Source: Fulvivirga maritima (lineage in GTDB: Bacteria; Bacteroidota; Bacteroidia; Cytophagales; Cyclobacteriaceae). From it: a DNA stretch of 64,000 bases. The notes under the pieces were generated by a model, which had not been told where the DNA came from, searched no databases, and worked only from the letters and a program-made list of their open reading frames with translations. The position numbers and the translations under genes are program-made. Below are positions 39,805-63,406 of the stretch, in pieces. Position 1 is the first letter of the stretch. Each line of letters starts with the position of its first letter. The stretch covers positions 619,501 to 683,500 of the forward strand of contig NZ_CP089980.1 of NCBI RefSeq assembly GCF_021389955.1. Direction: 5' to 3'.

Positions 39805-40641
39805 TCAGATATCAATTTCTACGATGAAGTAGTCTGCATCATCACCCTTGTCTTTATCAGAAGTGGGCATATCCCACTTTTCTTCAGGGCTCTCTGTAAT
39901 TACAAAATCACCTCCCAGCCGCATGCTCTCAATGGCTGCCTTCTCTGGTACTTCATGAATAGTTTTTTCTATTATATTAATTTGATGCTTCTCCATAGGC
40001 ACTAAAATGCTCCAGGGAGTACTTGGGCGCAGCAAGCCCGGTCCGTCCATAGAATCAGAAATAGAGTACTCCTCCCTACTATGATGCACCACCACTACCG
40101 ATAGTTTAGTTATGAAAGTGACATATTCTCTAGATTCAAGAAATGTAAGGACTTCTTCATGCTTTACAGAACCCCAAAACTGAATGCCGGCAGAGGTCCG
40201 GTAAAACCAGGGACATAAAAATTGCTGTAGTTCCTCGTGCAGCCTGGTTATGTATTCACCCTTTTTACTGTTATCATTAAATTTGAGATTACAATTAATC
40301 TTCACCCGTTCATACACGGGATTCATTACTTTAACACTCACAAAATGAGAGGCATGCGATAAAACAAAGCCCCTTATTTCTCCTAAGGTCTTAAAATCTA
40401 TTTTAGGTAAATAAAAAGCTCTGTTTCGGTCAATATCTGGCACTACCACTATCACTACTTCCCCTCCTTTTACTTCTTCAAAACCATCTGCCGGGGTTAT
40501 ACAAACTACTCTTTTCACCATAGGAAAATGAGATAAAATGAGATGTTCATAGTCCCAAGGAGTAACCAACCTGTTTTTATGCCGCAACCGCTCACTTACG
40601 CGAGCATAAAACCTATCTTCAGTTTCTACAGGAACCCCCAA
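39805..40641 (-). CDS. eCIS baseplate protein, Pvc11-type, C-terminal frame
   Basis: A 278-aa frame that is the C-terminal part of the Pvc11-like baseplate J protein. It includes DRFYARVSERLRHKNRLVTP and the baseplate J-like block that follows the N-terminal part in intact relatives. The only usable start is a TTG at 40641, at the exact place where the upstream frame is lost. The two frames overlap by 16 bp at a homopolymer (five A then five C on the plus strand). A 1-base change there would join it to the 988-aa upstream frame as one ~1270-aa protein. As drawn it would probably be poorly translated. Confidence 0.72.
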   Translation of the reverse strand: MGVPVETEDRFYARVSERLRHKNRLVTPWDYEHLILSHFPMVKRVVCITPADGFEEVKGGEVVIVVVPDIDRNRAFYLPKIDFKTLGEIRGFVLSHASHFVSVKVMNPVYERVKINCNLKFNDNSKKGEYITRLHEELQQFLCPWFYRTSAGIQFWGSVKHEEVLTFLESREYVTFITKLSVVVVHHSREEYSISDSMDGPGLLRPSTPWSILVPMEKHQINIIEKTIHEVPEKAAIESMRLGGDFVITESPEEKWDMPTSDKDKGDDADYFIVEIDI

Positions 40642-48071: not shown

Positions 48072-49565
48072 TTATGATTTTTGCATTTGCTGTTGGAAGG
48101 TGATGACAATAAACTCAGCAGGTCTTGTTACAGCCAGTTTCACTGTTATTCTCATAATTCCATCGAGCACATCAGTAGGAGTCATGGTTACCCCAAGGCC
48201 AACATCTACACTAAAAGCATCTTCTGGAGTAGAGCCGGCCAATGCACCTCTTTTCCACTGATCAGTAAGGAAATTGGTCATCATGCCTTTCACCGTTACC
48301 CAGGTATTCACCACGTTGGGTTTAAAAACATAAGCCTCTGAAGCCGCCTTGAGCGATTGTTCTATCATGATTACTGTTCTTCTCACTGACAGGTATCTCC
48401 AATCCTGACTGTTACCGTCAAGCGTTCTTGCGCCCCAAACCAGCACCCCTTTACCAGGGAAACTTCTGATAGCGTTTATGGCTTTTCCGTTTAGAGGAAG
48501 GTTTAAATCTTCTTGAATAGTATGGGTAATATTTACGGTTGGTTTTATTACAGAACCAATAGAAACATTAGCGGGAGATTGGAATACGCCTACTGAACTA
48601 TCTACCATAGAAAGTACACCAGCCATACCTACACTTGGAGGCAAAATATTGGTTTGAGACCTTACTTCAGCCATAATAGCTTTATATAGCGGACTTACTG
48701 CGCTCAGCGTTTGGTGCAGAGAGGTTACGTCAGCATCATCACTAGAAAGTTGTTCTATTTCTGCTTTTATTAATTCAGCTCTCTTTTCTTTTATGGCTTC
48801 GTTAGCCACCATATCGTCCACTTCCTTATTTAACACTGCGGCCAGGCCATCAGCATTACTAATATTGGTATAGTTAATTTCATCAGCAGAAACTATGGTA
48901 GTACTTAACCAGGGATAGTAGGCCGCCCCCCATTGCAGGAAGTTAATACCAATACCTTCACGAAACTTGGTGATTACATCATCATCAGCCATGGTTCGCT
49001 CCTTATGTCCTCCATAAATATCTAGCAGAGCTACACGACTTTTCATTTCAAAGCCACAGTGCTGCAACATATCTTGCTGTAAAGAATAGCAGTCTGCCTC
49101 CTCTAGCAGCACGGCATCAGGTATTACCAACATGGTAGGCTCCGGCTCTTTAAGCAAAGTACGTATGCCACCTTCATTATCCACATCATTTAGCTCTGAT
49201 GCTTTAACACCTGAAGAATAATCTCCTACCGACACGATATAGCAGGTAGAACCACCATTGGCAAAAAAGAGCCTTAGACAATTGTAAAGATTATATTTTG
49301 TGTCAGGATTAACCGTAAGATTAAACTGAGCCTCATCATCCTCCGCCACTTCATACGTGATTTTAGGACCTCTACCAAAAAACTGATGGTACTCCCCTAA
49401 TGAAGTGATGCGTGTAGGCACATTTTTTATAGACTTATTGTCTCTCACTGCCTTTTCTGTATAACCTACAAAAGCAGGAACTGCCGTAGCCACTGCTACT
49501 GCCGAACTAGGGAAGGCACTTTTCTCCTCAATATACACTCCCGGGGTAGCCAATACTTGAGTCAT
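48072..49565 (-). CDS. Contractile sheath protein (Pvc2-4-like)
   Basis: A 497-aa tail sheath protein with the classic N-terminal LATPGVYIEEKSAFPSSAVA and FVGYTEKA motifs, a variable central insertion and the conserved C-terminal half (GKGVLVWGARTLDGNSQDWRYL and WKRGALAGSTPEDAFSV). It would contract on firing. There is only one sheath gene here, while PVC and Afp loci carry three, so the whole sheath would be one subunit type. Confidence 0.96.
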   Translation of the reverse strand: MTQVLATPGVYIEEKSAFPSSAVAVATAVPAFVGYTEKAVRDNKSIKNVPTRITSLGEYHQFFGRGPKITYEVAEDDEAQFNLTVNPDTKYNLYNCLRLFFANGGSTCYIVSVGDYSSGVKASELNDVDNEGGIRTLLKEPEPTMLVIPDAVLLEEADCYSLQQDMLQHCGFEMKSRVALLDIYGGHKERTMADDDVITKFREGIGINFLQWGAAYYPWLSTTIVSADEINYTNISNADGLAAVLNKEVDDMVANEAIKEKRAELIKAEIEQLSSDDADVTSLHQTLSAVSPLYKAIMAEVRSQTNILPPSVGMAGVLSMVDSSVGVFQSPANVSIGSVIKPTVNITHTIQEDLNLPLNGKAINAIRSFPGKGVLVWGARTLDGNSQDWRYLSVRRTVIMIEQSLKAASEAYVFKPNVVNTWVTVKGMMTNFLTDQWKRGALAGSTPEDAFSVDVGLGVTMTPTDVLDGIMRITVKLAVTRPAEFIVITFQQQMQKS

Positions 49566-49583: not shown

Positions 49584-50606
49584 TTAAAAATATATATACA
49601 TTTCTGAGTATGCTCTTATCTCTCCCTGCTCAGCCTGCATCCTTACCTTGTTCACATCAGGAGTGGGTAAATTCATCCGTTTCTTTACATTTCTGCCTGC
49701 TTCTATCTTTACCATCTCCAGCTCCATGTGCCTTTCATACCGCTCTTGCAATTGAATAGGAGCTGTAGTTTCAATATAATAAGCCTTTTCTCCTGTGACC
49801 ATGATCTTATCCTGCACATCGTTAAGTGGTACTTCATTTTTGCCTGAGTACACTTTGAATTCAGCATATTTTCCATCATCACGATGAATAAGGTTGTATT
49901 TCCAGGTAGTAGCCCTGGAAGCTATATTTATTGTATAGTCTGTTCCTTTTATAGTATCAAAATGGTGCTTACCTCCACTGCCTGGTTCAATGACTATATT
50001 AAGCACTGCCATGCACTGCTTAAGGCCTGAAGGCTTATAGTAAAATGAGTAATTCTGATCCTGAGTAGATATTTTCAGATATCCGCTTTCTTTTAAAAAC
50101 AAATTGAATTCAGCCTGATCTATTGAAGCCCAACCCCTTTGATGAAAGACTTCACCGTAAAGATTTTTAATGCTAATGTCTGAATCGGATCCAACAGCAT
50201 TTAAATGATTTTTAATATCTAATACTGAGGACACAAGAACCACCTGTTCTCCACCAGCCAAATAATCGCCTTTATGCAGTTGCTGCTCTTCAGCACCTAA
50301 ATTAGTTAACCAGTAAGGCTCATTAAGAGCAGTAGAAATGTCTGAGTAATTATAAAAAGAGGTGTCTTTAGCTATAAGAAAGAAACAAAACCGAAGAGGC
50401 GACTTGATATTTTTTAACAAAGAAGAGCCGTTTTCAGATTCTCTGTATAATAAAGAAAATCCTGAATCAAAATCGCGAAGTACAATTCCATAGCTTTTTA
50501 GTAAACTCTTTGTATTCCCATCTAAAACCTGCCTTACTCCCCTGAATTTGCCTGAACTATAGTACTCGTGAAAATAATTTACCGAAAAAAGCTTTTCGTA
50601 TTTCAA
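49584..50606 (-). CDS. Conserved eCIS protein of unknown function
   Basis: A 340-aa protein in the position between the cap gene and the sheath gene. It has no signal peptide or TM segment and no catalytic motif I recognise. It is beta-rich with several Trp/Tyr-containing strands, such as FYNYSDISTALNEPYWL. A structural role in the particle (for example terminal cap or plug) is plausible from position; nothing more can be said. A 165-bp AT-rich gap upstream may carry its own promoter. Confidence 0.65.
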   Translation of the reverse strand: MKYEKLFSVNYFHEYYSSGKFRGVRQVLDGNTKSLLKSYGIVLRDFDSGFSLLYRESENGSSLLKNIKSPLRFCFFLIAKDTSFYNYSDISTALNEPYWLTNLGAEEQQLHKGDYLAGGEQVVLVSSVLDIKNHLNAVGSDSDISIKNLYGEVFHQRGWASIDQAEFNLFLKESGYLKISTQDQNYSFYYKPSGLKQCMAVLNIVIEPGSGGKHHFDTIKGTDYTINIASRATTWKYNLIHRDDGKYAEFKVYSGKNEVPLNDVQDKIMVTGEKAYYIETTAPIQLQERYERHMELEMVKIEAGRNVKKRMNLPTPDVNKVRMQAEQGEIRAYSEMYIYF

Positions 50607-50771: not shown

Positions 50772-51338
50772 TTATGATTCCAGGTCAAAACCTTTAATAG
50801 CAGGGATCTCATCAATGATATTATCCTGACTAAAGGTGAGCATCTTCATTTTGTAGACTACCGTGGGCGTATACTTGGCTCCAGTCATAGAAAAAAGGTT
50901 CATTTGCTCCTGGGGTGCCAGAGATAGCATGTCAAAATGGATTTTTTCTACATTCTGGCTAAGACCTGGAGTATTTTGTGCTGTAAACAATGGTTTCGAC
51001 TGAAAGAAGTAGATAACCCCAGAAATATATTTCAGAGACTCCACATAATTTCTTGGCTGGAAATAGGCCGAAATCATAATGGTAAGGTTCACGCTGATGG
51101 ACGGGGTGAAATCCACAAAAGCACTCCCCATTAACCGCTGATTGGCTTTGGCCTTTAGTGTACCCTCTTCTGATATATTAATTAAAGTAAGCACCATTTT
51201 ATTATGGCCTTCTATGGCTATGGCTCCGCTCTGATCAATGATATTAGATAAGATCACCTTATCTTCCACTGAATTAAATCGTGTTTTAAGATATTCATTA
51301 AGTTCTCCGGCTATTACGGGAAGTATGTTATGTATCAT
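50772..51338 (-). CDS. DUF4255 terminal cap protein (Pvc16-like)
   Basis: A 188-aa protein of the DUF4255 family, with NILPVIAGELNEYLKTRF at the N-terminus and the LMGSAFVDFTPSISVNLTIM middle segment. In Afp/PVC/AlgoCIS the member of this family caps the tube end and ends tail growth. It lies 13 bp after the 79-aa membrane-protein gene. There is no other cap candidate in this locus. Confidence 0.9.
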   Translation of the reverse strand: MIHNILPVIAGELNEYLKTRFNSVEDKVILSNIIDQSGAIAIEGHNKMVLTLINISEEGTLKAKANQRLMGSAFVDFTPSISVNLTIMISAYFQPRNYVESLKYISGVIYFFQSKPLFTAQNTPGLSQNVEKIHFDMLSLAPQEQMNLFSMTGAKYTPTVVYKMKMLTFSQDNIIDEIPAIKGFDLES

Positions 51339-51351
51339 GAATTGCTTATTC

Positions 51352-51591
51352 TTATTGAGATATTAAAACCCTTTTTACCGCCCATACGGTAAGCCGAATG
51401 AGGTAAACGCCTATAAACCCAAGCACTCCACCAATTATTAAAAGATCCATTTCCAACACCTTTTCGTCTGGCGTTAGTACTGCTCCTGAAGGCTGCACAT
51501 GCATCAGATATAAAAACAAGAACCCCACTGGCAAAGCAGTGATCAAGGCTATGAAGAAATATAAAAACTCTCGCGCTATAGTACTTTTCAT
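51352..51591 (-). CDS. Small two-TM membrane protein in the eCIS operon
   Basis: A 79-aa protein with two hydrophobic helices (about residues 9-29 and 48-72). It begins 5 bp after the GH18 gene ends and ends 13 bp before the cap gene, so it is part of the operon. No family recognised. A role beside the GH18 and DUF4407 membrane proteins is inferred. Confidence 0.65.
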   Translation of the reverse strand: MKSTIAREFLYFFIALITALPVGFLFLYLMHVQPSGAVLTPDEKVLEMDLLIIGGVLGFIGVYLIRLTVWAVKRVLISQ

Positions 51592-51596
51592 ATATT

Positions 51597-53348
51597 CTAA
51601 GGCAATTTATTTCTATAAGAGATGTACCTGTTTGTGACCAAATAAACAATGACTGCCCCTATCACTAATCCGATCAGTAAAGGAAAAAGATAGGCGCCCA
51701 ACCCGCCTTCCGGGTGAACCAGCAGAGACACAGACACAATGCTCAACACTATGATTACCCCTGCGAACAAGGCTCTATAAGTGAAGTTTTGGAAAAATAT
51801 TTCACGTACCCTCCAATCGAATAGTGATATAAAAAGGCCTAATACAAAGAAATAAACGATAATAATCAGGCCAACACCTATAGCTCTTTTGTGCTCTACC
51901 AGGGATTCTACCATTCCGTAAAGTCTCCCATTATCCACATCTATGGGTTCTATGCGTTGCAATGGCTTCATGCCAAAGCTCTTGGCTATGGCATTAGTAA
52001 TGCCCGGCTGATTGCCATCATACCCTAATGACCAGATAGCGGCACCTTTCATACCATGATCAAGTGCCCATTTAAATTTCATTTCTAAGCCTTCAGAACT
52101 CTCATACCAAACCAACTTAGTTTGCTTGCCCTGATCTACTATAAAAAATGAACTACCACTCACTGGGTCATAAGAAGTTTCGTAATCTTGACCATAACGG
52201 GCCATGACATCGCTATAAGTGATATAGCCGTCAAAATTAGCTTTAGCATCCCAACTGTTTCCTTTCAATGTCCATTCGGTACCGTAAGCAGGCAAGCCCA
52301 AAATCGCCTTTGCTGGCTTAAGTCCATTTCTTATACAATAATCAAACGTGTTTACAATACAAGGACAGTTACTATTGATGGTAAGCAAAGGTGACACCGG
52401 CCCCGGTTTACCTCCACAATCTACCCGACTATAATCGTAGCCCTGCACCACATAGAGGTCTACCACATCATTCAAAGCAAAAAAGTCAATGCCTCCATGA
52501 TTATTGTAGGCTGGCACCTGAACTGTGACCATACGTGCATCTCCCAGCTTGCTTTTCACCTGCTTCACAAACCTTGTAAATGCTTCTTTGTTGTTTTCAG
52601 TAAGACCTTCAAAATCAATATCTACACCGGCTCCGCCACGCATATTCAATAGCATGTCCACCGAGTCTATCATGCGCCCCCACAGCATCTCATCTTGTAA
52701 AAAGGCATTAGTCTCAGCGGCCCCATAATTAGTGATGCTCAACAGCACTTTTACATCATGCGCTTTAGCTGAATCTATCATAGCTGTGGTTTTCCAGTCA
52801 TTGATGGCATCAGCATCATTATACAGACCGGAATTAGGATCTATATCATAAGAATAATAGGAAATGATGGAAAGCAGGTTATAATTATAGTTCTTGAAAT
52901 CATCTTTCATCCAGTAAGGATGCCACCCGAATACAATATCGCCTTTGTTAAGCGCATTGATTTTATCTAACCTATTATAGAAACGATTGTCTGTAGAATC
53001 CCAAACTATTTTATTGAGGTTCTTGGTATTCTTAAACTTCACCTGATGATACTTGCCATGCAGTGAGCGAAAGAGATAGGCATAATCATTTACCACTCCC
53101 CGCTGAGGAATGTATCGTTCCTTTTCCCACGCAATAGTATCAGCCACATTTTCTTCAGGAGTAACCGTTTTCTTTTCTGAGCTAAAAAACCGCTCCATGC
53201 GCCTCATATCACTTTTGGCAGTGTTAGTCTCTCGCTCCGTTTGCCGAAGCTTTTTCCGTGCCCCTTGCAATAAACCCTGCTGAGCATGAAGTGCTACTGA
53301 ACTCAAGTTTAATATGACAAGAAAGATTAAAGCTCTACTCATAATCAT
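51597..53348 (-). CDS. Membrane-anchored GH18 glycoside hydrolase
   Basis: A 583-aa protein with a signal peptide (residues 1-22), a short helical linker, a GH18 chitinase-fold domain (about 135-455) and three C-terminal TM helices. The catalytic motif VDIDFE at about 242-247 carries the two Asp and the Glu of the DxDxE motif, so it should be active. GH18 enzymes cleave beta-1,4 GlcNAc-type bonds; in SleL-like members the substrate is peptidoglycan. This gene, embedded between DUF4407 and the cap gene, could let the particle cross or anchor in the cell wall. That role is inferred. Confidence 0.82.
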   Translation of the reverse strand: MIMSRALIFLVILNLSSVALHAQQGLLQGARKKLRQTERETNTAKSDMRRMERFFSSEKKTVTPEENVADTIAWEKERYIPQRGVVNDYAYLFRSLHGKYHQVKFKNTKNLNKIVWDSTDNRFYNRLDKINALNKGDIVFGWHPYWMKDDFKNYNYNLLSIISYYSYDIDPNSGLYNDADAINDWKTTAMIDSAKAHDVKVLLSITNYGAAETNAFLQDEMLWGRMIDSVDMLLNMRGGAGVDIDFEGLTENNKEAFTRFVKQVKSKLGDARMVTVQVPAYNNHGGIDFFALNDVVDLYVVQGYDYSRVDCGGKPGPVSPLLTINSNCPCIVNTFDYCIRNGLKPAKAILGLPAYGTEWTLKGNSWDAKANFDGYITYSDVMARYGQDYETSYDPVSGSSFFIVDQGKQTKLVWYESSEGLEMKFKWALDHGMKGAAIWSLGYDGNQPGITNAIAKSFGMKPLQRIEPIDVDNGRLYGMVESLVEHKRAIGVGLIIIVYFFVLGLFISLFDWRVREIFFQNFTYRALFAGVIIVLSIVSVSLLVHPEGGLGAYLFPLLIGLVIGAVIVYLVTNRYISYRNKLP

Positions 53349-54277
53349 TATTTCTTTTTAGGCACTTTTTTCTCTCCACTTTTAACAAAATCAAAGGCCA
53401 TTACTTTAAAATAGACATACTCTCCCACTACTTCGTCATCATTAATTACAGCCAAAGTATAGTGCCCCGGGTGCTTATTAACTGTACCATAAGCTGTAGT
53501 ATGATATGAACTATTTACTCCAGGCCCTTTCAATGACAATTCAATTTTTTTGCTCTCAGACTCTGGAAATTCATTCCTATTCTTCATAAAAAAGGCCACT
53601 AAGGGATCTCCCACGGGTTGCTGCGTTTTTATATCTACCTGGTTATTTGCCTCAGCACCATATTCTCTTCCAAACCCAATTAAAAAGGCCCAGTATAGCG
53701 GCGCCTTGTCTTTCGCTGGAGCAATATCAAACTCCACCGTTTTCCTATAATCTTCCTTGATATTTCTTCTGGCTCCAAGGTAGTAAGTATCATCAAGGAC
53801 TAACCGAGGAACGGTGTCATATACGGCCACTGTAACAGAATCTACAATAATAGGTACCTTGATTTTTGTTGTTTCCGTCCACCCTTTGGCCTGTTTCAAA
53901 GTGATAGTAACATAATTATTCTTCAGACTCCTATTGAGTATTTCCAGCGTATAAGTGCCTGCACCGGCATCAGTGGGTAGTGGCATATTTTCTACCTGAT
54001 CGTCTATCATGAACTGCTTCTCTGTATTATCAGGAAAAACTATGCGATATTTCATTTTAACATCTTTTTCCTTTTTCAAAGTGTACAATAAGCTATCTCC
54101 TGCATTTACCTGAAATGGAAATTTCTTCTTTGTCATTACCCACACTTTCATCCTGGTATGTAAAAGAGTAACCGTATCTATACCGCTATAAGTACTGTCT
54201 TCTAATGTAAATTGCTGCGCCACAGAAATTCCACAGCACAAAAAACATAGTATTGAGAAGAAAAAAGCTGCCCTCAT
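53348..54277 (-). CDS. Exported protein of unknown function in the eCIS operon
   Basis: A 309-aa protein with a signal peptide (residues 1-20) and otherwise beta-rich sequence without recognisable motifs; the C-terminus is basic (GEKKVPKKK). It shares one base with the GH18 gene start and overlaps the DUF4407 gene by 4 bp (ATGA), the tightest coupling in this module, so its product is likely made in step with both. A periplasmic partner of the membrane protein is the simplest guess. Confidence 0.68.
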   Translation of the reverse strand: MRAAFFFSILCFLCCGISVAQQFTLEDSTYSGIDTVTLLHTRMKVWVMTKKKFPFQVNAGDSLLYTLKKEKDVKMKYRIVFPDNTEKQFMIDDQVENMPLPTDAGAGTYTLEILNRSLKNNYVTITLKQAKGWTETTKIKVPIIVDSVTVAVYDTVPRLVLDDTYYLGARRNIKEDYRKTVEFDIAPAKDKAPLYWAFLIGFGREYGAEANNQVDIKTQQPVGDPLVAFFMKNRNEFPESESKKIELSLKGPGVNSSYHTTAYGTVNKHPGHYTLAVINDDEVVGEYVYFKVMAFDFVKSGEKKVPKKK

Positions 54278-55467
54278 ATTATTTTATCAGTGTTCTGATA
54301 TTGATCTGTTTTACGCTTCATATCTTCCCTGAGCTTTTTCTTTTCCTGCTCTACCCAAATAGAAAGCTGCTCACGCACCAATTCTTCCTGAGCTTCTTCT
54401 ATCAGTTGTAATGTTCTTTTATTATTAATGATCTGCTGCTCCACTTTTTCTTGCTCTACATTAGCCAAGACAGTCAGCTGATTATTGAGCTTCTGGTTAC
54501 GCAGATTAATCGATGATATTTCATCTATCTCATAATCATACTCTATAGTTTTAAGCAAATGATCATAAGGCCCATAAGGGGAAAGTAACTTGGTAAGTAT
54601 AGGCGCCACTTCTATGCAAATGAGTAGCATAACAATGGCTAATGACGGACCTGAAGGCAGATTTCCTAAGGCATTTAACCTGGCCAGTAAACCAGAAGCG
54701 AAAGAGGCCTGTAACTCATGCTTATACTCCTTTTCTTCTGCATGAAGATCATCTATTATTGCTTGTATGGTCTGTATTTCTTCATCATTTTCAGCTTTAG
54801 CCAGCTTATATTCTTCATCAGCCTTCAGGTATTTCTGCTCCTTTCTCAAGCATTCAGAACCTATACCTTTTTCGCCGGTACCACAGCTGCCTTCGCACTC
54901 ACATTTATACTCTTCATAGTACTTTTCCCGAATTTCAAACTTAGCATTAGTGGCGGCTTTTAGCTTTTCTATAGAGGCTCTGCGCTTGTCTATTTTCTGC
55001 TCATAGAGCTGATCTATGTCTTCAAGCTTTTTCACCCCTGTGTAGTGTAGCTGCTCATTGATTTCCTGCTCAAAAATCTTTAACTCCAACGGCTTAGAGA
55101 TAATGAGAGACAGAAAAACCGCCAATAATAAGCGTGGTATCACCTGTTTCCACTGATCCGACTTCTTATCATTTTTCTTAATGGTAGAAACAATAAACCT
55201 ATCTAAATTAAAAATAAGCCCACCCCAAAACAGCCCCAATAGAGCCCCGATAGTTACACTATTAAAAACGGTATAAATAGCATATCCACCTGATAAAGCG
55301 GCCAATAAACCGGTAAAAAAGACGGTAGCTCCTACGCCGGCATATTTATTCCTTTCTGAAGAAGGGCACTTTTTTAGAAGATCCTGATTAGCAGCTGAGC
55401 AAAACAGGAAAAACCTCATAAAAGGCTTCAGCTTTACTTCCTCTACCTCCATATTATTCCTGCTCAT
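54274..55467 (-). CDS. DUF4407-family multi-pass membrane protein
   Basis: A 397-aa membrane protein of the DUF4407 family. The N-terminal half has at least three TM segments (YAGVGATVFFTGLLAALSGG, ALLGLFWGGLIF, RLLLAVFLSLIISK). A long coiled middle part (about 150-260) contains a Cys-rich CECEGSCGTG loop. A further TM lies near IVMLLICIEVAPILTKLL, and the C-terminus is a long, charged helix. The family function is not known. Here it overlaps its upstream and downstream genes by 14 and 4 bp inside an eCIS operon, which makes a membrane anchor for the particle possible. Confidence 0.78.
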   Translation of the reverse strand: MSRNNMEVEEVKLKPFMRFFLFCSAANQDLLKKCPSSERNKYAGVGATVFFTGLLAALSGGYAIYTVFNSVTIGALLGLFWGGLIFNLDRFIVSTIKKNDKKSDQWKQVIPRLLLAVFLSLIISKPLELKIFEQEINEQLHYTGVKKLEDIDQLYEQKIDKRRASIEKLKAATNAKFEIREKYYEEYKCECEGSCGTGEKGIGSECLRKEQKYLKADEEYKLAKAENDEEIQTIQAIIDDLHAEEKEYKHELQASFASGLLARLNALGNLPSGPSLAIVMLLICIEVAPILTKLLSPYGPYDHLLKTIEYDYEIDEISSINLRNQKLNNQLTVLANVEQEKVEQQIINNKRTLQLIEEAQEELVREQLSIWVEQEKKKLREDMKRKTDQYQNTDKII

Positions 55468-56689
55468 AATAAGATTTCATTGATTTAAGAACATCAGCAA
55501 CACCAGGCTTCCGTTTAAATAATCGTTTCAATTGACAAAAAACACCCCTATTTATGGATTTAATATTACATTTTTTATTGTAATTATTAAAAATTAATTC
55601 ATCCGCATGATTCACCAGATAGGTTCCTCGCTGCTCTTGGGCTTTTCTAATTTCCTCAAGTGATTGATTATAAATTCCTTTTCTATTTTTTATCTCTTCT
55701 AAAATTTCTGCTGTATCAGGTATCTTTTTTTGAAGCTGCTCACTCAAAGCTTCTGAATTGAGCATTAATTGATCTCTAAATACTTTTATAGGAAAAACTA
55801 ATAGCTGGATTTTGCGAGTGACCGACCTATTATGAACTACGGCCTCTATTAGGATTTCGGTATGCCTTTCTGCCAGGAATCCATAGATCCCTTCGGTACC
55901 TTGTAAATCGAATGGTAATATGCTTACGGCATTAGAATCTTTAACCGACCATTGAAACCGTACGTAATTACCTTTAGAAACACCGTAAACGTGAGTTCCT
56001 TCAGCATCCGCCGCTAAATCAGAATAATTTTGTGTTTTGGGGTGAGCAGCACTTAAGGTATAGTTGATTTGAAGATCATCATACACACTTACAAAAGTCG
56101 TTCTTAAGCTCGTTTGCGCCTGATTATAGGCTCCCAACTTAAATATAGTATTGCGCTGAGGCCTTACCTTTTTATAACCGATATGATCCACTTCGCCAAT
56201 GCCATGAATAATAACCGTTTGCGCATTTTTTACTTCCCAGCGTAAAGTAATCTCATCATCTTTAAAGATAATATCATCATTCACTTCAAAATGAATTTGA
56301 ATATCATTGTCTTCCTGAAGAAAAGGAGTCGCTCCCTTTATCAGGGACCTGGTATTTCTTAAGTACTGGGTTAAATCATCTGCTGGTGTGGTGCCTGCAT
56401 CATCATAAATGGATAAATTTTGATAATCAGCTATAGCATATGATATAAAATCATGCTCCACCACATATATCTGAGCTCCTTTTTTGAGTAAAACCAGACA
56501 TTTATTAAACAGAAAAACATTATTTTCTATGACTAATCCTACTTCACGAGAAACCACAAGGGTAACGGCTATCCCTTTCTCTAACAGGGTAGTTAAAGCA
56601 CTCAGAATCTCTTCTGAAGGCGGTTGATTTACTACCAGCTTCAGGTCTTGCTTTACATCAGAAATTACATAGCCAATATCAGACTGCAT
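55454..56689 (-). CDS. eCIS-associated protein of unknown function
   Basis: A 411-aa protein without a signal peptide. The middle (about residues 145-200, LRWEVKNAQTVIIHGIGEVDHIG) looks like an Ig-like beta domain, followed by a second similar one, and the C-terminus is a basic helical tail. The N-terminal ~100 residues have an alternating strand-helix pattern that could be a nucleotide-binding or PLD-like fold, but no HKD motif is present. It lies 108 bp after the AAA+ gene and overlaps the DUF4407 gene by 14 bp. Function unknown. Confidence 0.6.
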   Translation of the reverse strand: MQSDIGYVISDVKQDLKLVVNQPPSEEILSALTTLLEKGIAVTLVVSREVGLVIENNVFLFNKCLVLLKKGAQIYVVEHDFISYAIADYQNLSIYDDAGTTPADDLTQYLRNTRSLIKGATPFLQEDNDIQIHFEVNDDIIFKDDEITLRWEVKNAQTVIIHGIGEVDHIGYKKVRPQRNTIFKLGAYNQAQTSLRTTFVSVYDDLQINYTLSAAHPKTQNYSDLAADAEGTHVYGVSKGNYVRFQWSVKDSNAVSILPFDLQGTEGIYGFLAERHTEILIEAVVHNRSVTRKIQLLVFPIKVFRDQLMLNSEALSEQLQKKIPDTAEILEEIKNRKGIYNQSLEEIRKAQEQRGTYLVNHADELIFNNYNKKCNIKSINRGVFCQLKRLFKRKPGVADVLKSMKSYYEQE

Positions 56690-56797: not shown

Positions 56798-58150
56798 CTA
56801 AAGTGTAATGCCTTCTTTATGATACTCCTTGTTTATGCCTTTGAGAATATCTTCCATATACACCTTATCATCACCACGCTTTTTGGCTGCTATAGTGCAA
56901 TGACGCAGCACGTTAATCATGCTACCTCCTGTTATTTCATGATCCATAGCTATTTGCTCCAGGTCTACATCTACCAGGTCAAAGGTATCATCAAAATACT
57001 TTTGCCATAGGCGAAGTCTTTCCTCCAGCTTAGGTTTAGGAAAATACACCACAGACTGAAAACGTCTTAAAAAGGCCGTATCAATATTATCTTTGAAATT
57101 AGTAGCCAGAATGACTACCCCATCAAAATCTTCAATCCGCTGCAACAGATAGGCCACCTGCTGATTCACAAACTGATCATTACTACTCTGCACACTGGTG
57201 CGCTTTCCGAAAAGGGCATCGGCTTCATCAAAAAACAGTATCCAGTTCTTATTTTCAGCCATTTCAAAAATACCAGCCAGATTCTTTTCCGTTTCTCCGA
57301 TATACTTAGACACCACAGCAGAAAGATCAATCTGATAAACATCCATTTCTGCTTGCTGCCCCAGCAATGCGGCTGTCATCGTTTTTCCCGTTCCGGGAGG
57401 GCCATGAAAAAGTATCCTAAAGCCTCTTTTCAAATGCTTTTGCAGCTTATCATTTTGCATGATTTCATGACTATGCTGAATCCATATTTTTGCTTCTTCC
57501 AGGTCATTGAGCGTATGATCATCATACACAGCATCTTCCCAATGCAGCCTGCTGGTGAGCCGCCGTGCAGGAAAAGAAGAGGTATATTGCGGCTTGTACT
57601 CCCGGCCTTGCACCAAAAGACTCAGATATTCTTTACTAATAGTGAGTGCTCCACTAAAAACAGGTTCATTTTCATTGATACCGGTTAGGCTTAGGATGTT
57701 TTGAGTATGAAAAAAGTGAGTGTCAGAAAACAGATCCAGAAGCTCAAACCGTTTCTCCAGATCATTTCCACTTAGTATAAAAGAAACCGTTTCTCCTGTA
57801 GGAATAAAACCACTGTGGGCCTGACCGGTTATACCACCAAAAACCGTGAATCCGCGGTCAAAATTGGTGTTTTTGGTGAAAAATATATCATAAATAGCCG
57901 GAGAGACATGCACAGCCAGAGCCATCAATAAGATTATCCTCTCTTCTGCAGTAAATTCATACTCCTTAATTACCGCACTATAAACAGAATCATCCTGACT
58001 AAGGTCTGGTGGAGGCACCTCATCTATACTTTTATGTTCTGACTCCTGAAAATAATTATTGAACCTGAACTCAATCACCTGACTGAGCCAGTCGAGATCT
58101 TCCTTAATTACTTTAATAGCTGATTTTATCTTTTTACTTTCAGAAGCCAT
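56798..58150 (-). CDS. AAA+ ATPase of the eCIS (Pvc15-like)
   Basis: A 450-aa AAA+ ATPase with Walker A GPPGTGKT at residues 250-257, Walker B LFFDEA at 305-310, and sensor and arginine-finger positions in ATNFKDNIDTAFLRRF. The N-terminal ~200 residues are a separate domain that may bind the partner protein. In Pvc/Afp systems the Pvc15 ATPase is needed for effector loading or particle assembly. It is the second gene of the operon, 6 bp after the tape-measure gene. Confidence 0.92.
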   Translation of the reverse strand: MASESKKIKSAIKVIKEDLDWLSQVIEFRFNNYFQESEHKSIDEVPPPDLSQDDSVYSAVIKEYEFTAEERIILLMALAVHVSPAIYDIFFTKNTNFDRGFTVFGGITGQAHSGFIPTGETVSFILSGNDLEKRFELLDLFSDTHFFHTQNILSLTGINENEPVFSGALTISKEYLSLLVQGREYKPQYTSSFPARRLTSRLHWEDAVYDDHTLNDLEEAKIWIQHSHEIMQNDKLQKHLKRGFRILFHGPPGTGKTMTAALLGQQAEMDVYQIDLSAVVSKYIGETEKNLAGIFEMAENKNWILFFDEADALFGKRTSVQSSNDQFVNQQVAYLLQRIEDFDGVVILATNFKDNIDTAFLRRFQSVVYFPKPKLEERLRLWQKYFDDTFDLVDVDLEQIAMDHEITGGSMINVLRHCTIAAKKRGDDKVYMEDILKGINKEYHKEGITL

Positions 58151-58156
58151 TTGATG

Positions 58157-61100
58157 TTAATTTCGCCACTTTACGTTTAAGCTCTTTTTCATCCAAGATA
58201 ATTTTATTGTGTTAAACGACCAAGGCATAAAATCCAATAAAATATCCTTACCGCTTTCCTCCACCTCAAGCTCCCAATTGTAAGGTGTTTCTACCAGATA
58301 TCCTGTTCTCATTAAAAAACCTTCCCTCAAAGCATCAACAGAAACATTTTGCATTCTGTCCCAATTTTGCAGCACTCCTTTCAGCAGGCTTTCAGAAATA
58401 TCCTTTTCTTTATCAGTCAACTCTATAAATCGGTCTACCGGATAAGCTAAATCCACTCCGCAGAGCACTTTGTTAAGCACCAGCTCATGCTCAGGTGTTT
58501 CCTGCTCTCCAGTGATCAGATATTGAACCAGCAATACTGCCCTGGCAGCCGTTTCCTCATCTTTAAAAACCCGCTTTTCTTTCATTTGGAGCATATCAAA
58601 ATAGCGAGGTAAAAAATTAGCCAGAATAACAGCTCCTGCGTTATGTACCTCCAAACTTCCCTTCAGTGGGGTTTCAGGTATGTCCTTTTTATCTTCCTCT
58701 TTCGTGGTTTTAGATGGTTTTTTCGGCAAAGCTACGGTCTTTTTTAGAGAACGCTTAAAAAGAGTAGATACCTGCGGTGAAGGTTTATAGTCTTTAATAT
58801 GCTCTTGAACCTCTTCTTTCCACCCAGGAATCAGCCGTAGCTTCACTTCTTCAAAGAAAGCATGAATAAGCCTTTCAGAGTTAAACTGAAGCTGCGCTCC
58901 TGTCTTTAATGATGCTATTAAGACTTTGATAGCCAGTGCTTCATAGTTGCCTTTAGATATTTCAGGGTGTGAATATCTCATAAAATCCACCACTCCTGTA
59001 AGCCACTCTGCAAGCCTTACTTTTGGAATCTGATAGATAAAAGCAGCGATTTGTATTAACAGAGTATTTCCATGTTTCAAGAGCTTATCTACAGCTAGTG
59101 GCTGCTTGAAAGATTGTAAGGAAGCTCGTAACTCCGGACCATTCGTTTCTGCTTCTGCCTTGAATATATCCTGAAGCTCCTGATATGTTTTAATTTCAGT
59201 ATTAAATGGCAATGCTGCCTTGGTAAGATAAAAAACGAGGACATCGAAAAAAGTTAACTGTTCGGCTTCAGAATCCTCCCCATTGATGAGAGAAGGAGAA
59301 GTTTTAAGGCCTTTAGATAAAGATGGAACTGAAGTCAAAACCTCAATTAAGGTATCGAATTTAGACTCGCCCTTCAAAGCCATTTCATGCGCAATATGCT
59401 CCATCCTTTCTAAAAACTGTCGATGATTTATATTAAAAGCATCAGTAACGAACATAGACATTTGCGACGTAAATGCCTGAGCAGTAAAACTTCGTTTATT
59501 GGTTTTTACATAATTATACATGTACAGGTAAACCGAATGTGCGGAAGGAAATGCTAGTCTGCCATAATACTCCCGCGCCGACAACTGTAACACCCTGACA
59601 TACATCACTATGAAGCCTGCTATTTCAGGAGCCATAGCTGTAATCAGACTTAAGTATTCGTTTAAAGTGACCTCTTTAATTATTTTCTGAACAAAGGCCT
59701 GTTCCTTTCCTGATGTACGTAATGACTCAATTAGGCTTGGTATATCCCTTTGAAATATAGTTTTGTACAGTCTCGCTTTCTCCTTTTCTATAGAGCTGCC
59801 TTTTTTCTCTGGATGCTGATACCACCATGGAAATTCATTATATTCCAGTATATAAAAAAGAGCATTAACATCAACAGCATTGTCGCTTTCCTCAAGCTTA
59901 TCTTCCTGCTGAACAGTTACTGGCTGATTACCTTTAAATGCCTTTAAGGCTTTAATTAAAGGTTTACTTTTTAGTTTATGAACCCTTTCGTTTAGAAAGT
60001 AATAAATCTCCTGAATACCAAGCGCATAATGTGCAGCTATATTATTTATTAACTGCGTAGCCACCTGATGCCCTTGCAAAGAAGTCGATTTCACCAAAGC
60101 TGCTGTTATCTGTTCATTTAAATAAGTTTCTAGATGAGTTTTAGTGGTTTGAAGAAAGACAGGTAGTTCTTTCAGCAACAGTAAATCTGCCACCACCAAT
60201 CGATAAACCTTAAACTTCTGCGCATCAACGGCCTTTAAAATAGCCTTAAGCTCTTCATCGCCCACCAATTGAGTAAATGTTATTAATGCCTGATCATCAT
60301 CTTTAATAAAAAGCAAAACATCCAAAATCTTATGCATAGAGAGCTCTATACCACGAGAAATTAGTTTTTTAATGGATGAAACACCTCTAAATGTAGACCA
60401 TACAGGAAAAGTCTGAGTTTTTAAGTAATAAATAATCAGTTCCTCGGAGGTAAATTCCGCCTGCCGATCAGTCTCCACTCCCTCTTTAAGCCATTCTCTC
60501 AGCTGACCTCCTTTGTTCATAACTAACTGCTCATCAATCGCTTCTTTTAAGATATGGGGACCTATTTGAGGATAATAATGACTGAGTTCATGCCAAAACA
60601 CACTTCCTTGCTTACCATATTGATGGGAAAAGTACTGTGCAAAAACGACTAATAACTGTTTAACTGTATACTGGAAAAGAGTCCTTTCCTGCATCAACAG
60701 CACTTCCAATAAGGATAAATATATGTTCCTTTTAAAAGCTGCTTCAGAAGACTTAAAACTGAGATTATGGGCTGATTTTCCGAAAGCAATCAGTGTTTCG
60801 AATACCAATTCAAATACCGCCAACCTTTGGCTATTGACCTGCCCCAGCATCACCACCAGATCTGCTGATCTTATTAAATTTACCAGTCTTATAAAAGCCG
60901 GTCTATCTTGATATATTTCTTTAAATACCGAAGTAACCAGAGCTGGTCGTTGCTTTATATTCTCCCTTAAAAGAGACTTCAATTGAGTTAACTCTGAAAT
61001 GCTAGCCCACTTTGGAATATGCCCTTCGACCGCATAAAACTGGATTAAATCAGAAAACTCATATTCAGATGAATGCTCTAATGCGATTCCTTCTAAACGC

Positions 61101-63406
61101 TTTCGTTTAATTGGCTGCTGAGAAGACTTTGTTTCAAGAACGGGTGCTGTTTCATTTTCAGTTGAGGTAAGCTCTTCTTTTTGATCATTAGGCGTAATAC
61201 CCCTTATAAATTCTTTGCCCTTATTCTCTAACCACTTAGCCAGATGTTGGTAATAATAACTCCTGTTAATTGGGTTCTTTAAAAGTAATTGCAAGACCTT
61301 GCTTGCATTCCTATACTTAGCATTCGACAAACTCTTCTTCAGATTTGTGAATATATACCCATAAATAAAATGAACTATTTCCGTGACAGAAGTAGAAAAA
61401 TCACTGGCAACCAATTTTTCCAACACTCCTTTGACTAAATCAAAAGACAAAGGATAAATTGATTTTTCATCACCTGGAAAAGAAGGTAATTCTGCTTGTA
61501 ATCGCTTTATTTCTTTAAAAACCTGCTCCAAAACAGACCTTTGAAAAGGAGCCAGTTGAAGCACCAGCTGCTGCCGCTGCCTATCATTCAAAACCTGCAA
61601 AATATGCCTCCAAAAATCAGGGTGGACTTCATATTGGAGTAATAACTGAGGCAAGAAATAATGATTTTGAAATGCCTCTAAAAGAGCCTTCTCCACCTCT
61701 TTCTTTTTCTTTTCCGCTTTATTATTCACATTACCCCCGTTAGCCAATATCTCTGGAATAATTGAGGCATAATAACCTTTTGACTTGTACCATTGCTCAG
61801 ACTCCTCTTTCAAAAGAGAAATTAAGGCAATACCTGGGTGCTGCTGTCCTTGTGCGAGTAGTGTAATTATTTCATCAGCTTTTGCTTGAAGCTGAGTAAC
61901 ACTTTGCGTGAAAACATGAAAAAAGGCCGCTGTAAATTCAGCTTCATTAACAGTTTCAGAAGTTCCTTGATGCATCACCTCGAAAAAGGAAAAATACAAA
62001 TGCCTTTTTATCCTTTCAGGAACATCCATAGCATGAAACTCATCCGAATCAAACAGGTTTTCAAAAAGAGATAAGTGCTCAGAATCACCAAAAAGAAGAT
62101 GTATGATTTGAATGACTTGAGTGATATCCAGCTGATAAGCCACTCTATACCTTACTGGGAAATGTGCCCATTTTTCATGCAATACTTGAGTTAATAGGAT
62201 AGCATGAGATTGCAATAAACCGTCCACAACATCAGCCAAAGTCAATTCTGAAGGGAAAAGCCCTGTCTCCAAAAAGCGAATGAAAAGATCCATTTGGCTA
62301 TAGGAAATTGCCATTTCCCGATCCTTTTCAAAGGTCTGACGATTGTCCTTGCCAACAGCCAACCAGCTCTGATCATCATCCCAATCATTGAGTTGACTCT
62401 TTAATCGTCTTTGAGCATATTTAGTCAGCACTACACCAGACTCTTTGAGCATATCCCTGATTACTTTGGCCTGAGCCTTCTGCTGCTTACTATTAGCCAT
62501 AAAAGCTAAAAAGGCCTTTTTATATTGATATGTATAGGTATAGCGATGCGCTAATTCGTTCTCAGCAAATATTAGACGAACACGTTTAAAAGTTTCTATA
62601 GATTGCTCATATTCAGGAATCAACAAAAACAAAGACTCTAAAAATTGAATAGATAAGGTCTTTATTATTCGATCTTCAATCTCTTTTTTATTTAGTTTAG
62701 GAGCCAGGCGCTGCATCATCTTTTTTCTGTCCGAAGTATTGAGCTTTTTTAAAGCCGCTTCTACTTCCCCCTGAAAATAAGTGCGGAAACTACGCGGCCA
62801 TTTCCCTGACATAAAGTATTGTATCAACTCATCTACTCTGTTTTTTTGAATTGAAGTGTGACCTAGCAATTCTTCCAATTGATGGTAAAGTTGAGGTTTC
62901 AATTGCCTTTTCAACCTTTTCTGCACCACCACTTGCAAGCGTGCTTTCTTAAGAGTCTCTATTAAAAGCCTTTCATCTTTTTGCCATAATTCTTCAATCA
63001 ATTCATTGATATCATACGCTTCTTCCACATGAGCTGGAAAGTAAGATCGACTTAAAAAATGAGTGAGCCACTTATATCGATCATCAGCACTGTCTGATTC
63101 TAACTTCCTAAAAACCGGCAACTGCCTATTCTTTGACAGCTTTTTAAACTCACGATCGAGCAATTCAATCAATCGCCTTTTATATTCTTCAAGAAAATTC
63201 TCCGTATTAAATGCCCCCAGATCAAGCGCCACTTTATCTATAACCACCTCCTGATCATCAGAAAAATACTGATTAAACAGCTTCTCTATCGAATCATTAA
63301 TGGCTTTGCTATTACCTTGTAGCTGCTGGCTAATACGCTTGTGATCAGCCACATCTTTGGCTGTAATTACTACACGGTATTTTTTGATTTGGTGGGGTTT
63401 AGACAA
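58157..63406 (-). CDS. CIS_TMP-type tape-measure protein (Pvc14-like)
   Basis: A 1749-aa protein, first gene of the operon. The N-terminus (KAINDSIEKLFNQYFSDDQEVVIDKVALDLG) and the C-terminal block (ELVLNKVLCGVDLAYPVD) mark it as a contractile injection system tape-measure protein. At least seven copies of a short motif, roughly DLIxFYxxxGxxP, are spread along the chain (near 63.05, 62.8, 62.25, 61.0, 60.4, 59.85 and 59.2 kb), in long helical stretches. This protein should help set the length of the particle. No TM helices are evident. Confidence 0.88.
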   Translation of the reverse strand: MSKPHQIKKYRVVITAKDVADHKRISQQLQGNSKAINDSIEKLFNQYFSDDQEVVIDKVALDLGAFNTENFLEEYKRRLIELLDREFKKLSKNRQLPVFRKLESDSADDRYKWLTHFLSRSYFPAHVEEAYDINELIEELWQKDERLLIETLKKARLQVVVQKRLKRQLKPQLYHQLEELLGHTSIQKNRVDELIQYFMSGKWPRSFRTYFQGEVEAALKKLNTSDRKKMMQRLAPKLNKKEIEDRIIKTLSIQFLESLFLLIPEYEQSIETFKRVRLIFAENELAHRYTYTYQYKKAFLAFMANSKQQKAQAKVIRDMLKESGVVLTKYAQRRLKSQLNDWDDDQSWLAVGKDNRQTFEKDREMAISYSQMDLFIRFLETGLFPSELTLADVVDGLLQSHAILLTQVLHEKWAHFPVRYRVAYQLDITQVIQIIHLLFGDSEHLSLFENLFDSDEFHAMDVPERIKRHLYFSFFEVMHQGTSETVNEAEFTAAFFHVFTQSVTQLQAKADEIITLLAQGQQHPGIALISLLKEESEQWYKSKGYYASIIPEILANGGNVNNKAEKKKKEVEKALLEAFQNHYFLPQLLLQYEVHPDFWRHILQVLNDRQRQQLVLQLAPFQRSVLEQVFKEIKRLQAELPSFPGDEKSIYPLSFDLVKGVLEKLVASDFSTSVTEIVHFIYGYIFTNLKKSLSNAKYRNASKVLQLLLKNPINRSYYYQHLAKWLENKGKEFIRGITPNDQKEELTSTENETAPVLETKSSQQPIKRKRLEGIALEHSSEYEFSDLIQFYAVEGHIPKWASISELTQLKSLLRENIKQRPALVTSVFKEIYQDRPAFIRLVNLIRSADLVVMLGQVNSQRLAVFELVFETLIAFGKSAHNLSFKSSEAAFKRNIYLSLLEVLLMQERTLFQYTVKQLLVVFAQYFSHQYGKQGSVFWHELSHYYPQIGPHILKEAIDEQLVMNKGGQLREWLKEGVETDRQAEFTSEELIIYYLKTQTFPVWSTFRGVSSIKKLISRGIELSMHKILDVLLFIKDDDQALITFTQLVGDEELKAILKAVDAQKFKVYRLVVADLLLLKELPVFLQTTKTHLETYLNEQITAALVKSTSLQGHQVATQLINNIAAHYALGIQEIYYFLNERVHKLKSKPLIKALKAFKGNQPVTVQQEDKLEESDNAVDVNALFYILEYNEFPWWYQHPEKKGSSIEKEKARLYKTIFQRDIPSLIESLRTSGKEQAFVQKIIKEVTLNEYLSLITAMAPEIAGFIVMYVRVLQLSAREYYGRLAFPSAHSVYLYMYNYVKTNKRSFTAQAFTSQMSMFVTDAFNINHRQFLERMEHIAHEMALKGESKFDTLIEVLTSVPSLSKGLKTSPSLINGEDSEAEQLTFFDVLVFYLTKAALPFNTEIKTYQELQDIFKAEAETNGPELRASLQSFKQPLAVDKLLKHGNTLLIQIAAFIYQIPKVRLAEWLTGVVDFMRYSHPEISKGNYEALAIKVLIASLKTGAQLQFNSERLIHAFFEEVKLRLIPGWKEEVQEHIKDYKPSPQVSTLFKRSLKKTVALPKKPSKTTKEEDKKDIPETPLKGSLEVHNAGAVILANFLPRYFDMLQMKEKRVFKDEETAARAVLLVQYLITGEQETPEHELVLNKVLCGVDLAYPVDRFIELTDKEKDISESLLKGVLQNWDRMQNVSVDALREGFLMRTGYLVETPYNWELEVEESGKDILLDFMPWSFNTIKLSWMKKSLNVKWRN

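What the first reader, a model, noticed from the sequence alone, without database searches (positions are those of the whole stretch)
51352..56689. Five-gene membrane and hydrolase module inside the eCIS operon
Between the AAA+ ATPase and the cap gene lie five genes that the Pvc/Afp core does not have: a 411-aa Ig-like protein, DUF4407 membrane protein, 309-aa exported protein, active-looking membrane-anchored GH18 hydrolase, and 79-aa membrane protein. Overlaps of 14, 4 and 1 bp and gaps of 5 and 13 bp show a single coupled set. Together they span inner membrane and periplasm and include a wall-cutting domain. This suggests an envelope anchor or exit port for the particle, analogous in idea to membrane-attached CIS such as tCIS. 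This is inferred from gene content and order.
Basis: inference. Interest (0 to 1): 0.8.

Follow-up and report, generated by a model that had tools for sequence, protein, structure and literature searches.

The report
Membrane module inside a CIS operon
Five neighbouring genes whose products are predicted to lie in the cytoplasm, inner membrane and periplasm sit inside the genes for a bacterial phage-tail-like syringe, keep the same order in several related bacteria, and may be the part that attaches the syringe to the cell's own envelope.

Summary
The five-gene string is real and its coordinates are exact. Its order, ending at the cap gene, recurs in 7 other loci (Marivirga, Fulvivirga, five MAGs). 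In the MAGs no tape measure or ATPase precedes it; in two these are seen at the far end. The 8 module-bearing sheaths form one clade. DUF4407 and CIS genes are neighbours in only 2 of 194 genomes of the order and 1 of 395 of the phylum.

The 411-aa protein is a pseudo-phospholipase-D plus Ig-like protein. The GH18 motif is intact in the window, but 108 of 119 listed relatives lack DxDxE, so wall binding is likelier than cutting. The set is composite: GH18 beside the cap is wider spread, and four genomes keep the 411-aa/DUF4407 pair away from their CIS. This DUF4407 subfamily has four cysteines at the tip of a predicted periplasmic hairpin (15 of 15 module-type, 0 of 9 others tested).

Best explanation: a docking complex that holds this CIS clade at its own envelope. 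This is inferred; no contact with the particle was shown.

The parts
55454..56689 (-). 411-aa protein: degenerate PLD-like domain (HKD lost) + Ig-like domains + C-terminal tail; predicted cytosolic
   Evidence: ORF; PLD relationship; HKD loss; no visible signal peptide. Hydropathy flags two stretches (28-46, 50-68), which I read as PLD core
54274..55467 (-). DUF4407 inner-membrane protein, 4 TM helices, long predicted periplasmic helical hairpin with CxCxGxC...C at its tip, ~97-residue C-terminal helix
   Evidence: PF14362 E 3.5e-81; AlphaFold2 model pLDDT 88.1, pTM 0.63; Cys signature; hydropathy
53348..54277 (-). 309-aa exported protein (signal peptide), predicted periplasmic
   Evidence: ORF; N-terminal hydrophobic segment; relatives in A5; model too poor to use, mostly beta
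51597..53348 (-). GH18 protein: signal peptide, periplasmic GH18 domain, three C-terminal TM helices
   Evidence: PF00704 E 4.7e-31; TM pattern; catalytic motif; nearest solved relatives YdhD, a cortical-lytic enzyme and YaaH among 29 matches
51352..51591 (-). 79-aa protein with two predicted TM helices
   Evidence: hydropathy and alignment of 10 sequences
50772..51338 (-). cap protein (Pvc16_N / Alg16A type), module's 3' neighbour
   Evidence: PF14065 E 5.2e-27; PDB cap Algo1 2.2e-17
49584..50606 (-). 340-aa cap-adaptor-like protein
   Evidence: PDB 9r9n 'SalCis16b - cap' E 6.4e-7 over residues 3-89
48072..49565 (-). contractile sheath
   Evidence: PF17482 E 3.1e-9; PDB 9r9h sheath E 1.7e-163
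56798..58150 (-). AAA+ ATPase, module's 5' neighbour in this genome
   Evidence: PF00004 E 5.2e-31
58157..63406 (-). tape measure protein, first gene of the operon
   Evidence: PF19268 E 1.4e-100; the next genes upstream run the other way

Best explanation
The module encodes an envelope-docking complex for one clade of Cytophagales contractile injection systems. DUF4407 is its inner-membrane core. Its C-terminal helix and the pseudo-PLD/Ig protein form the cytosolic face that would meet the particle. Its long periplasmic hairpin, tipped by four conserved cysteines, would meet the exported 309-aa protein and the membrane-anchored GH18 domain, which would grip or locally loosen peptidoglycan. 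The 79-aa two-helix protein would assist GH18 in the membrane. The particle would then be held or assembled at the cell's own inner membrane and fire outward, or on envelope damage, instead of being freed only by lysis. Shown here: gene order, conservation, domain content, clade restriction in the sample, loss of enzyme residues, predicted topology. Inferred: physical contact with the particle, which end is held, and firing mode.
For: (1) Conserved order beside the cap in 7 further loci (L046, L047, L053, L055-L058), three more cut by contig ends. (2) No tape measure or ATPase directly before the module in L053, L055-L058; in L056 and L057 they lie at the far end of the region, so linkage is to the cap side. 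(3) The 8 module-bearing sheaths form one clade, SH-aLRT 100, in a 75-row tree. (4) Background: DUF4407 over its cut-off in 38 of 194 genomes of the order and CIS_TMP in 57 of 194, neighbours in 2; in 395 genomes of the phylum DUF4407 in 117, cap in 77, neighbours only in the window's genome. (5) In four genomes where the 411-aa/DUF4407 pair stands apart (G062, G103, G154, G192) the CIS has GH18 next to cap or cap adaptor. Of 15 genomes with module-type genes 14 have CIS_TMP; the 2 genomes with HKD-intact pairs have none. (6) Cys signature in 15 of 15 module-type and 0 of 9 other DUF4407 proteins tested, at the tip of hairpin H133-191/H204-258. (7) GH18 keeps its N-terminal and C-terminal membrane segments while losing catalytic residues: scaffold-like; two relatives also carry an OmpA domain. 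(8) The genome's second, AlgoCIS-like CIS has no such module; AlgoCIS was never seen membrane-anchored (PMC8894135, passage).
Against: No interaction, localisation or expression data. G142, in the same genus as three pair-carrying genomes, has the GH18-CIS but no DUF4407 match, and G093 likewise, so not every relative needs the pair. One MAG (G585) has module genes without a detected tape measure. The 79-aa gene was not found beside GH18 in the five f16 genomes, G093 or G004. A Cis13-like protein may be present (E 4.8e-4), so a released mode with short fibres stays possible. 50 of 61 sheath-bearing genomes show no linked GH18 (some loci cut by contig ends). The 309-aa protein could not be modelled. 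The trees contain few independent lineages. CIS_TMP presence does not tell which CIS a distant pair would serve.
Confidence: 0.5

Rival explanations
1. A firing trigger or stress sensor, not an anchor: the DUF4407/411-aa pair senses envelope state (cysteine-tipped hairpin as a redox or contact sensor) and makes the particle contract, as CisA is required for Streptomyces CIS firing.
For: CisA precedent: contraction and function depend on this membrane protein (PMC12237407, abstract passage). Conserved cysteines at the hairpin tip. The pair can sit away from the CIS cluster, which suits a regulator.
Against: Does not explain linked GH18, 309-aa and 79-aa proteins. Nothing here separates sensing from holding; both may be true.
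Confidence: 0.22
2. A release (lysis) cassette: GH18 as muralytic enzyme and the 79-aa two-helix protein as a holin-like pore free the particles by killing the producer.
For: Two-TM small protein next to the GH18 gene in the window, in 7 further module loci, and in G181 and G011. Nearest solved GH18 relatives include a spore cortex-lytic enzyme. The window GH18 keeps D-x-D-x-E.
Against: D-x-D-x-E is missing in 16 of 18 linked loci and in 108 of 119 listed database relatives, with the acid itself lost in 3 and 14. GH18 is tied to the inner membrane by C-terminal helices. The small gene was not found in seven GH18-bearing clusters. Does not explain DUF4407, the pseudo-PLD or the 309-aa protein.
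Confidence: 0.12
3. A passenger set: genes with another role (envelope stress or defence against phage) that became fixed by linkage in one CIS clade.
For: HKD-intact PLD/Ig + DUF4407 pairs exist in two genomes without CIS_TMP, and their PLD domain resembles the defence protein DrmC. Generic DUF4407 genes are common and mostly not beside CIS genes.
Against: Conserved order across a rearranged cluster, short overlaps and gaps in many loci, loss of HKD and a Cys signature in the module-type proteins, and CIS_TMP in 14 of 15 carrier genomes.
Confidence: 0.11

Closest known systems
Haloarchaeal T6SS with putative anchor Hbor_38620 (PMC11566945, passages)
   Same: A putative membrane protein outside the Pvc/Afp core is associated with one clade of CIS clusters and correlates with membrane attachment.
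   Different: There a single protein with six predicted TM helices, upstream of the core cluster, in an archaeon with an S-layer; here five genes inside the operon, with periplasmic parts, and no imaging.
Streptomyces CIS with CisA (PMC12237407, passages)
   Same: A cluster-encoded membrane protein on which contraction and function depend.
   Different: CisA is single-pass with a periplasmic domain like substrate-binding domains and is encoded just downstream of baseplate genes; DUF4407 has four predicted TM helices and the module sits beside the cap gene.
Thylakoid-anchored CIS of Anabaena (PMC8894136, passages)
   Same: Idea of a CIS held in a membrane of the producer; related sheath, Cis11 and Cis12.
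   Different: Anchored by a TM helix in Cis13 and a Cis12 extension; the Cis13-like protein here has no TM segment.
AlgoCIS and T6SS subtype iv, clade Ib (PMC8894135, passages)
   Same: Cap, Cis11 and Cis12 relatives. T6SSiv is stated there to attach to the inner membrane through a cage-domain site.
   Different: AlgoCIS is free in the cytoplasm; the passages I read name no DUF4407 or GH18 partner. The window's genome holds a second, AlgoCIS-like CIS without the module.
SalCis structures (PDB 9r9h, 9r9i, 9r9n, 9rce)
   Same: Closest solved sheath (E 1.7e-163) and only significant match of the cap-adaptor-like protein.
   Different: No paper with 'SalCIS' in the held library; its gene cluster could not be seen, so whether it has the module is unknown.

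Membership tests
eCIS-type contractile injection system (host operon) | sheath, T4 gp19-like tube, Pvc16-type cap, VgrG-like hub, gp25, Cis11/Cis12, tape measure and AAA+ ATPase in one cluster | tested here: met
eCIS-type contractile injection system (host operon) | release into the medium | not testable with these tools
   needs imaging or fractionation
Canonical T6SS | TssJ/TssL/TssM membrane complex | tested here: not met
   none of the five proteins matches a Pfam or NCBIfam Tss family; the rest of the genome was not searched for them
tCIS | Cis13 with a C-terminal transmembrane helix | tested here: not met
   249-aa Cis13-like protein, best 19-residue hydropathy 0.73; relation to All3316 only E 4.8e-4 over residues 3-40
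CisA-type membrane adaptor | single-pass protein with periplasmic substrate-binding-like domain | tested here: not met
   DUF4407 model has four membrane helices and a helical hairpin
DUF4407 (PF14362) | match above gathering score | tested here: met
   273.2 bits against a cut-off of 31.3
GH18 enzymes | GH18 domain above gathering score | tested here: met
   109.1 bits against 29.6
GH18 enzymes | catalytic D-x-D-x-E (motif meaning recalled) | tested here: met
   intact in the window (first D of the longer DxxDxDxE is A); but only 2 of 18 linked loci, window included, and 11 of 119 listed database relatives
Active phospholipase D superfamily | HxKxxxxD motif | tested here: not met
   incomplete in 15 of 15 module-type proteins; K missing in all, one still has H
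Holin/endolysin lysis cassette | small membrane protein beside an active wall hydrolase | tested here: inconclusive
   two-TM protein beside GH18; activity in doubt for most relatives

The most novel reading that the evidence does not exclude
A new kind of CIS docking apparatus for diderm bacteria, unrelated to TssJLM, CisA or Cis13: a DUF4407 membrane core with a cysteine-tipped periplasmic hairpin, a pseudo-PLD cytosolic adaptor and a largely degenerate GH18 wall-binding subunit encoded next to the cap. One CIS clade would have built a T6SS-like, envelope-held mode from two retired enzymes.
Probability: 0.38. Interest if true: 0.82.

Novelty: new variant of a known kind. Interest (0 to 1): 0.62.

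Why it matters
How non-canonical CIS attach to, or pass, the producer's own Gram-negative envelope is open as far as I could see; for clade Ib the passages of PMC8894135 that I read name a site on the particle but no membrane partner. This module gives deletable candidates in bacteria with named strains (Fulvivirga imtechensis AK7, Marivirga aurantiaca S37H4) and a sequence signature (CxCxGxCG...C in DUF4407) that can flag such systems. It also suggests that some clusters of the eCIS type may not be extracellular.

Tried and rejected
Anti-phage system: PADLOC gave no convincing match for the four window proteins scanned (best E 0.018 and 0.05); only the HKD-intact relatives resemble DrmC. Solved relative of DUF4407: none (best E 0.36). 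NCBIfam: none of the five proteins above a cut-off. Viral contigs: 2 loci, both only 34% identical DUF4407. Fold of the 309-aa protein: model too poor (mean pLDDT 49.7), so no fold search was made with it. Fold search of the DUF4407 model: machine busy three times. eCIS_core (DUF4157) cargo beside the window CIS: none found by that family model; in Fulvivirga and Marivirga such genes lie near the tape measure. Tail fibre absence as an argument for anchoring: dropped, because a Cis13-like gene may be present. Comparison with T6SSiv by sequence: not possible by name, since the whole-genome sample is unnamed; the small genomes of group f21 fall in the same larger sheath clade, but I do not name them.

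Rows dropped and choices made: sheath ORFs under 400 aa were left out of the tree. G051 has three sheath loci; the one most like the window's was labelled module-bearing although it lies on another contig than the module. L199's GH18 (no C-terminal TM helices, not beside a cap) was left out of the 18; the two GH18 pieces of L130 were counted as one. The 9 other DUF4407 proteins were picked by me, not all those found. The 120 listed GH18 and 120 listed DUF4407 database hits each include the window's own protein, are the best of 198 and 4441, and hold many near-copies. Linkage in draft genomes cannot be judged when genes lie on different contigs; on one contig but far apart lie, for example, G181 (about 47 kb) and G436 (about 66 kb). 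That the sampled order is Cytophagales is inferred from named contigs of equal length.

Literature: no paper in the held library has 'DUF4407' with 'contractile injection system'; 'GH18' with 'contractile injection system' gave 2 listings, not read; 'SalCIS' none; broader searches. Supplementary files and subscription journals were not searched.
Full report
WHAT IS THERE. The window is bases 619501-683500 of a 6.39-Mb single-contig genome, by its relatives a member of the Cytophagales (inferred). A minus-strand gene run goes from a tape measure gene (58157-63406) through an AAA+ ATPase, the five genes in question, a Pvc16-type cap, a cap-adaptor-like protein, sheath, tubes, hub, PAAR tip, gp25, Cis11 (in two overlapping frames), a short Cis13-like gene, Cis12 and an nSTAND1 gene. 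The next genes upstream run the other way: ECF sigma factor, FecR, STN.

THE FIVE PROTEINS. The 411-aa protein has no Pfam match over a cut-off, but relatives show what it is. The L041 and L042 relatives hit PLDc_2 at 5e-26 and 1.7e-21, the L040 relative at 4.6e-4 (below cut-off). A profile of 12 relatives, those two included, finds NucT, cardiolipin hydrolase and FAM83B in the PDB. HxKxxxxD is incomplete in 15 of 15 module-type proteins and intact in both outgroup proteins. So the protein is a pseudo-PLD followed by Ig-like domains, without a visible signal peptide. DUF4407 has four membrane helices, a long hairpin (H133-191, H204-258) and a C-terminal helix of about 97 residues in a model of mean pLDDT 88.1, pTM 0.63. 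By the positive-inside rule (recalled) the hairpin is periplasmic. Its tip holds C189, C191, C195 and C206, invariant in 41 of 41 aligned proteins, matched by the motif in 15 of 15 module-type and 0 of 9 other DUF4407 proteins tested, and in 118 of 119 listed relatives besides the query. The 309-aa protein has a signal peptide and an unusable, mostly beta model. GH18 has a signal peptide, the domain and three C-terminal TM segments (two flagged in L057). Of the 120 listed database proteins, window included, 116 have at least 500 aa and 105 of these show three C-terminal TM segments. The 79-aa protein has two TM segments.

CONSERVATION AND LINKAGE. A scan of the genome collection (84,980 species by its description) with DUF4407 alignment A1 gave 15 loci. 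Seven show the full five-gene order followed by the cap: Marivirga aurantiaca, Fulvivirga imtechensis and five MAGs (L053, L055-L058). Three are cut by contig ends (L048, L052, L054), three show only the 411-aa/DUF4407 pair (L049-L051), one is a generic DUF4407 gene (L059), and one is an HKD-intact pair (L060). In the five MAGs no tape measure or ATPase directly precedes the module; in L056 and L057 both are seen at the far end of the region, in the other three the tape measure lies on other contigs and the ATPase was not located. Five of the 15 are the same contigs as genomes in the unnamed sample (equal contig lengths). The scan patterns favour close relatives, so distant ones may be missed.

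BACKGROUND. In 194 genomes of the order DUF4407 is over its cut-off in 38 and CIS_TMP in 57; they are neighbours in 2 (G000, G051). In 395 genomes of the phylum the A1 profile hits 117 and the cap model 77; they are neighbours only in G000. The 411-aa profile hits 62 of the 194 genomes, mostly over one domain; full-length relatives occur in 8: six module-type (508-614 bits), all with a CIS, and two HKD-intact (389 and 396 bits), both without CIS_TMP. Over the genomes found, 14 of 15 carriers of module-type genes have CIS_TMP; the exception is a 2.8-Mb MAG.

A COMPOSITE MODULE. I fetched sheath loci of all 61 of 194 genomes with a sheath hit. GH18 of this type sits beside the cap or cap adaptor, or in the module, in 11 of 61: G000, G051, G062, G103, G142, G154, G192, G093, G181, G004, G011; this is a lower bound. 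G181 and G011 also have the 79-aa homologue; it was not found in the five f16 genomes, G093 or G004. G062, G103, G154 and G192 have the 411-aa/DUF4407 pair elsewhere; G142 and G093 have no DUF4407 match. The trans pairs fall inside the module-type DUF4407 clade (support 100/100). The sheath tree puts the 8 module-bearing rows in one clade (SH-aLRT 100, quick method, 75 rows). I read this as an older GH18/cap unit, joined in one lineage by the 411-aa, DUF4407 and 309-aa genes; the order of events is inferred.

THE GH18 QUESTION. The window keeps D-x-D-x-E, but only 2 of 18 linked loci do, window included; the acid residue is lost in three (G051, G181, G011). Among 119 listed database relatives 11 keep D-x-D-x-E, 94 have D-x-N-x-E and 14 have lost the acid; many are near-copies. 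Nearest solved proteins are sporulation-type and cortex-lytic glycosylases, with chitinases among and behind them, and two relatives also carry an OmpA domain. A wall-binding or weakly active subunit fits better than a cutter or lysin. The window's own enzyme may still be active.

MECHANISM. The most economical reading is a complex that joins cytosol, inner membrane and periplasm and holds or assembles the particle at the envelope. The place beside the cap gene may mean cap-side contact, or only co-regulation; the data do not decide. A trigger or sensor role is the main rival. A lysis cassette and a passenger set are less likely.

COMPARISON. Precedents exist for cluster-encoded membrane proteins in CIS: Hbor_38620, CisA and Cis13 of tCIS (passages). 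By their descriptions none has the build of this module; I did not compare their sequences. AlgoCIS, a related particle, is cytoplasmic (passage). The closest solved sheath is SalCis, whose cluster I could not see. So this is a new variant of a known kind, with the membrane link inferred.

Noticed in passing
window 39805-43592: The Cis11-like baseplate gene is in two overlapping frames (988 and 278 aa, 16-bp overlap) where Fulvivirga has one 1265-aa frame. Whether this is real or an assembly matter is open.
   Followed up: partly
window 34296-36314: An nSTAND1 NTPase gene follows Cis12; similar genes lie in or beside the CIS clusters of Fulvivirga, two MAGs (L056, L057 contigs) and f16 genomes.
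   Followed up: no
L045:3378-15001 and L044:1-9019: The same genome holds a second, AlgoCIS-like CIS with an eCIS_core (DUF4157) gene after its ATPase and no membrane module.
   Followed up: partly
L041:3739-6172 and L042:7521-10069: HKD-intact PLD/Ig + DUF4407 gene pairs in genomes without CIS_TMP, with DrmC-like PLD domains: a possible free-standing system.
   Followed up: no
L204:116-5356: Divergent from the CIS operon: ECF sigma factor, FecR, STN-domain gene and a PKD-rich protein with a sub-cut-off sorting-domain match; possible regulation not tested.
   Followed up: no
P0161 and P0163: Two relatives of the GH18 protein (706 and 713 aa) carry an OmpA domain as well as GH18 and keep D-x-D-x-E.
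   Followed up: no
L141:16031-17755: A protein-kinase-domain gene directly precedes the tape measure in Marivirga aurantiaca, after an AAA_13 gene and an unassigned 293-aa gene.
   Followed up: no
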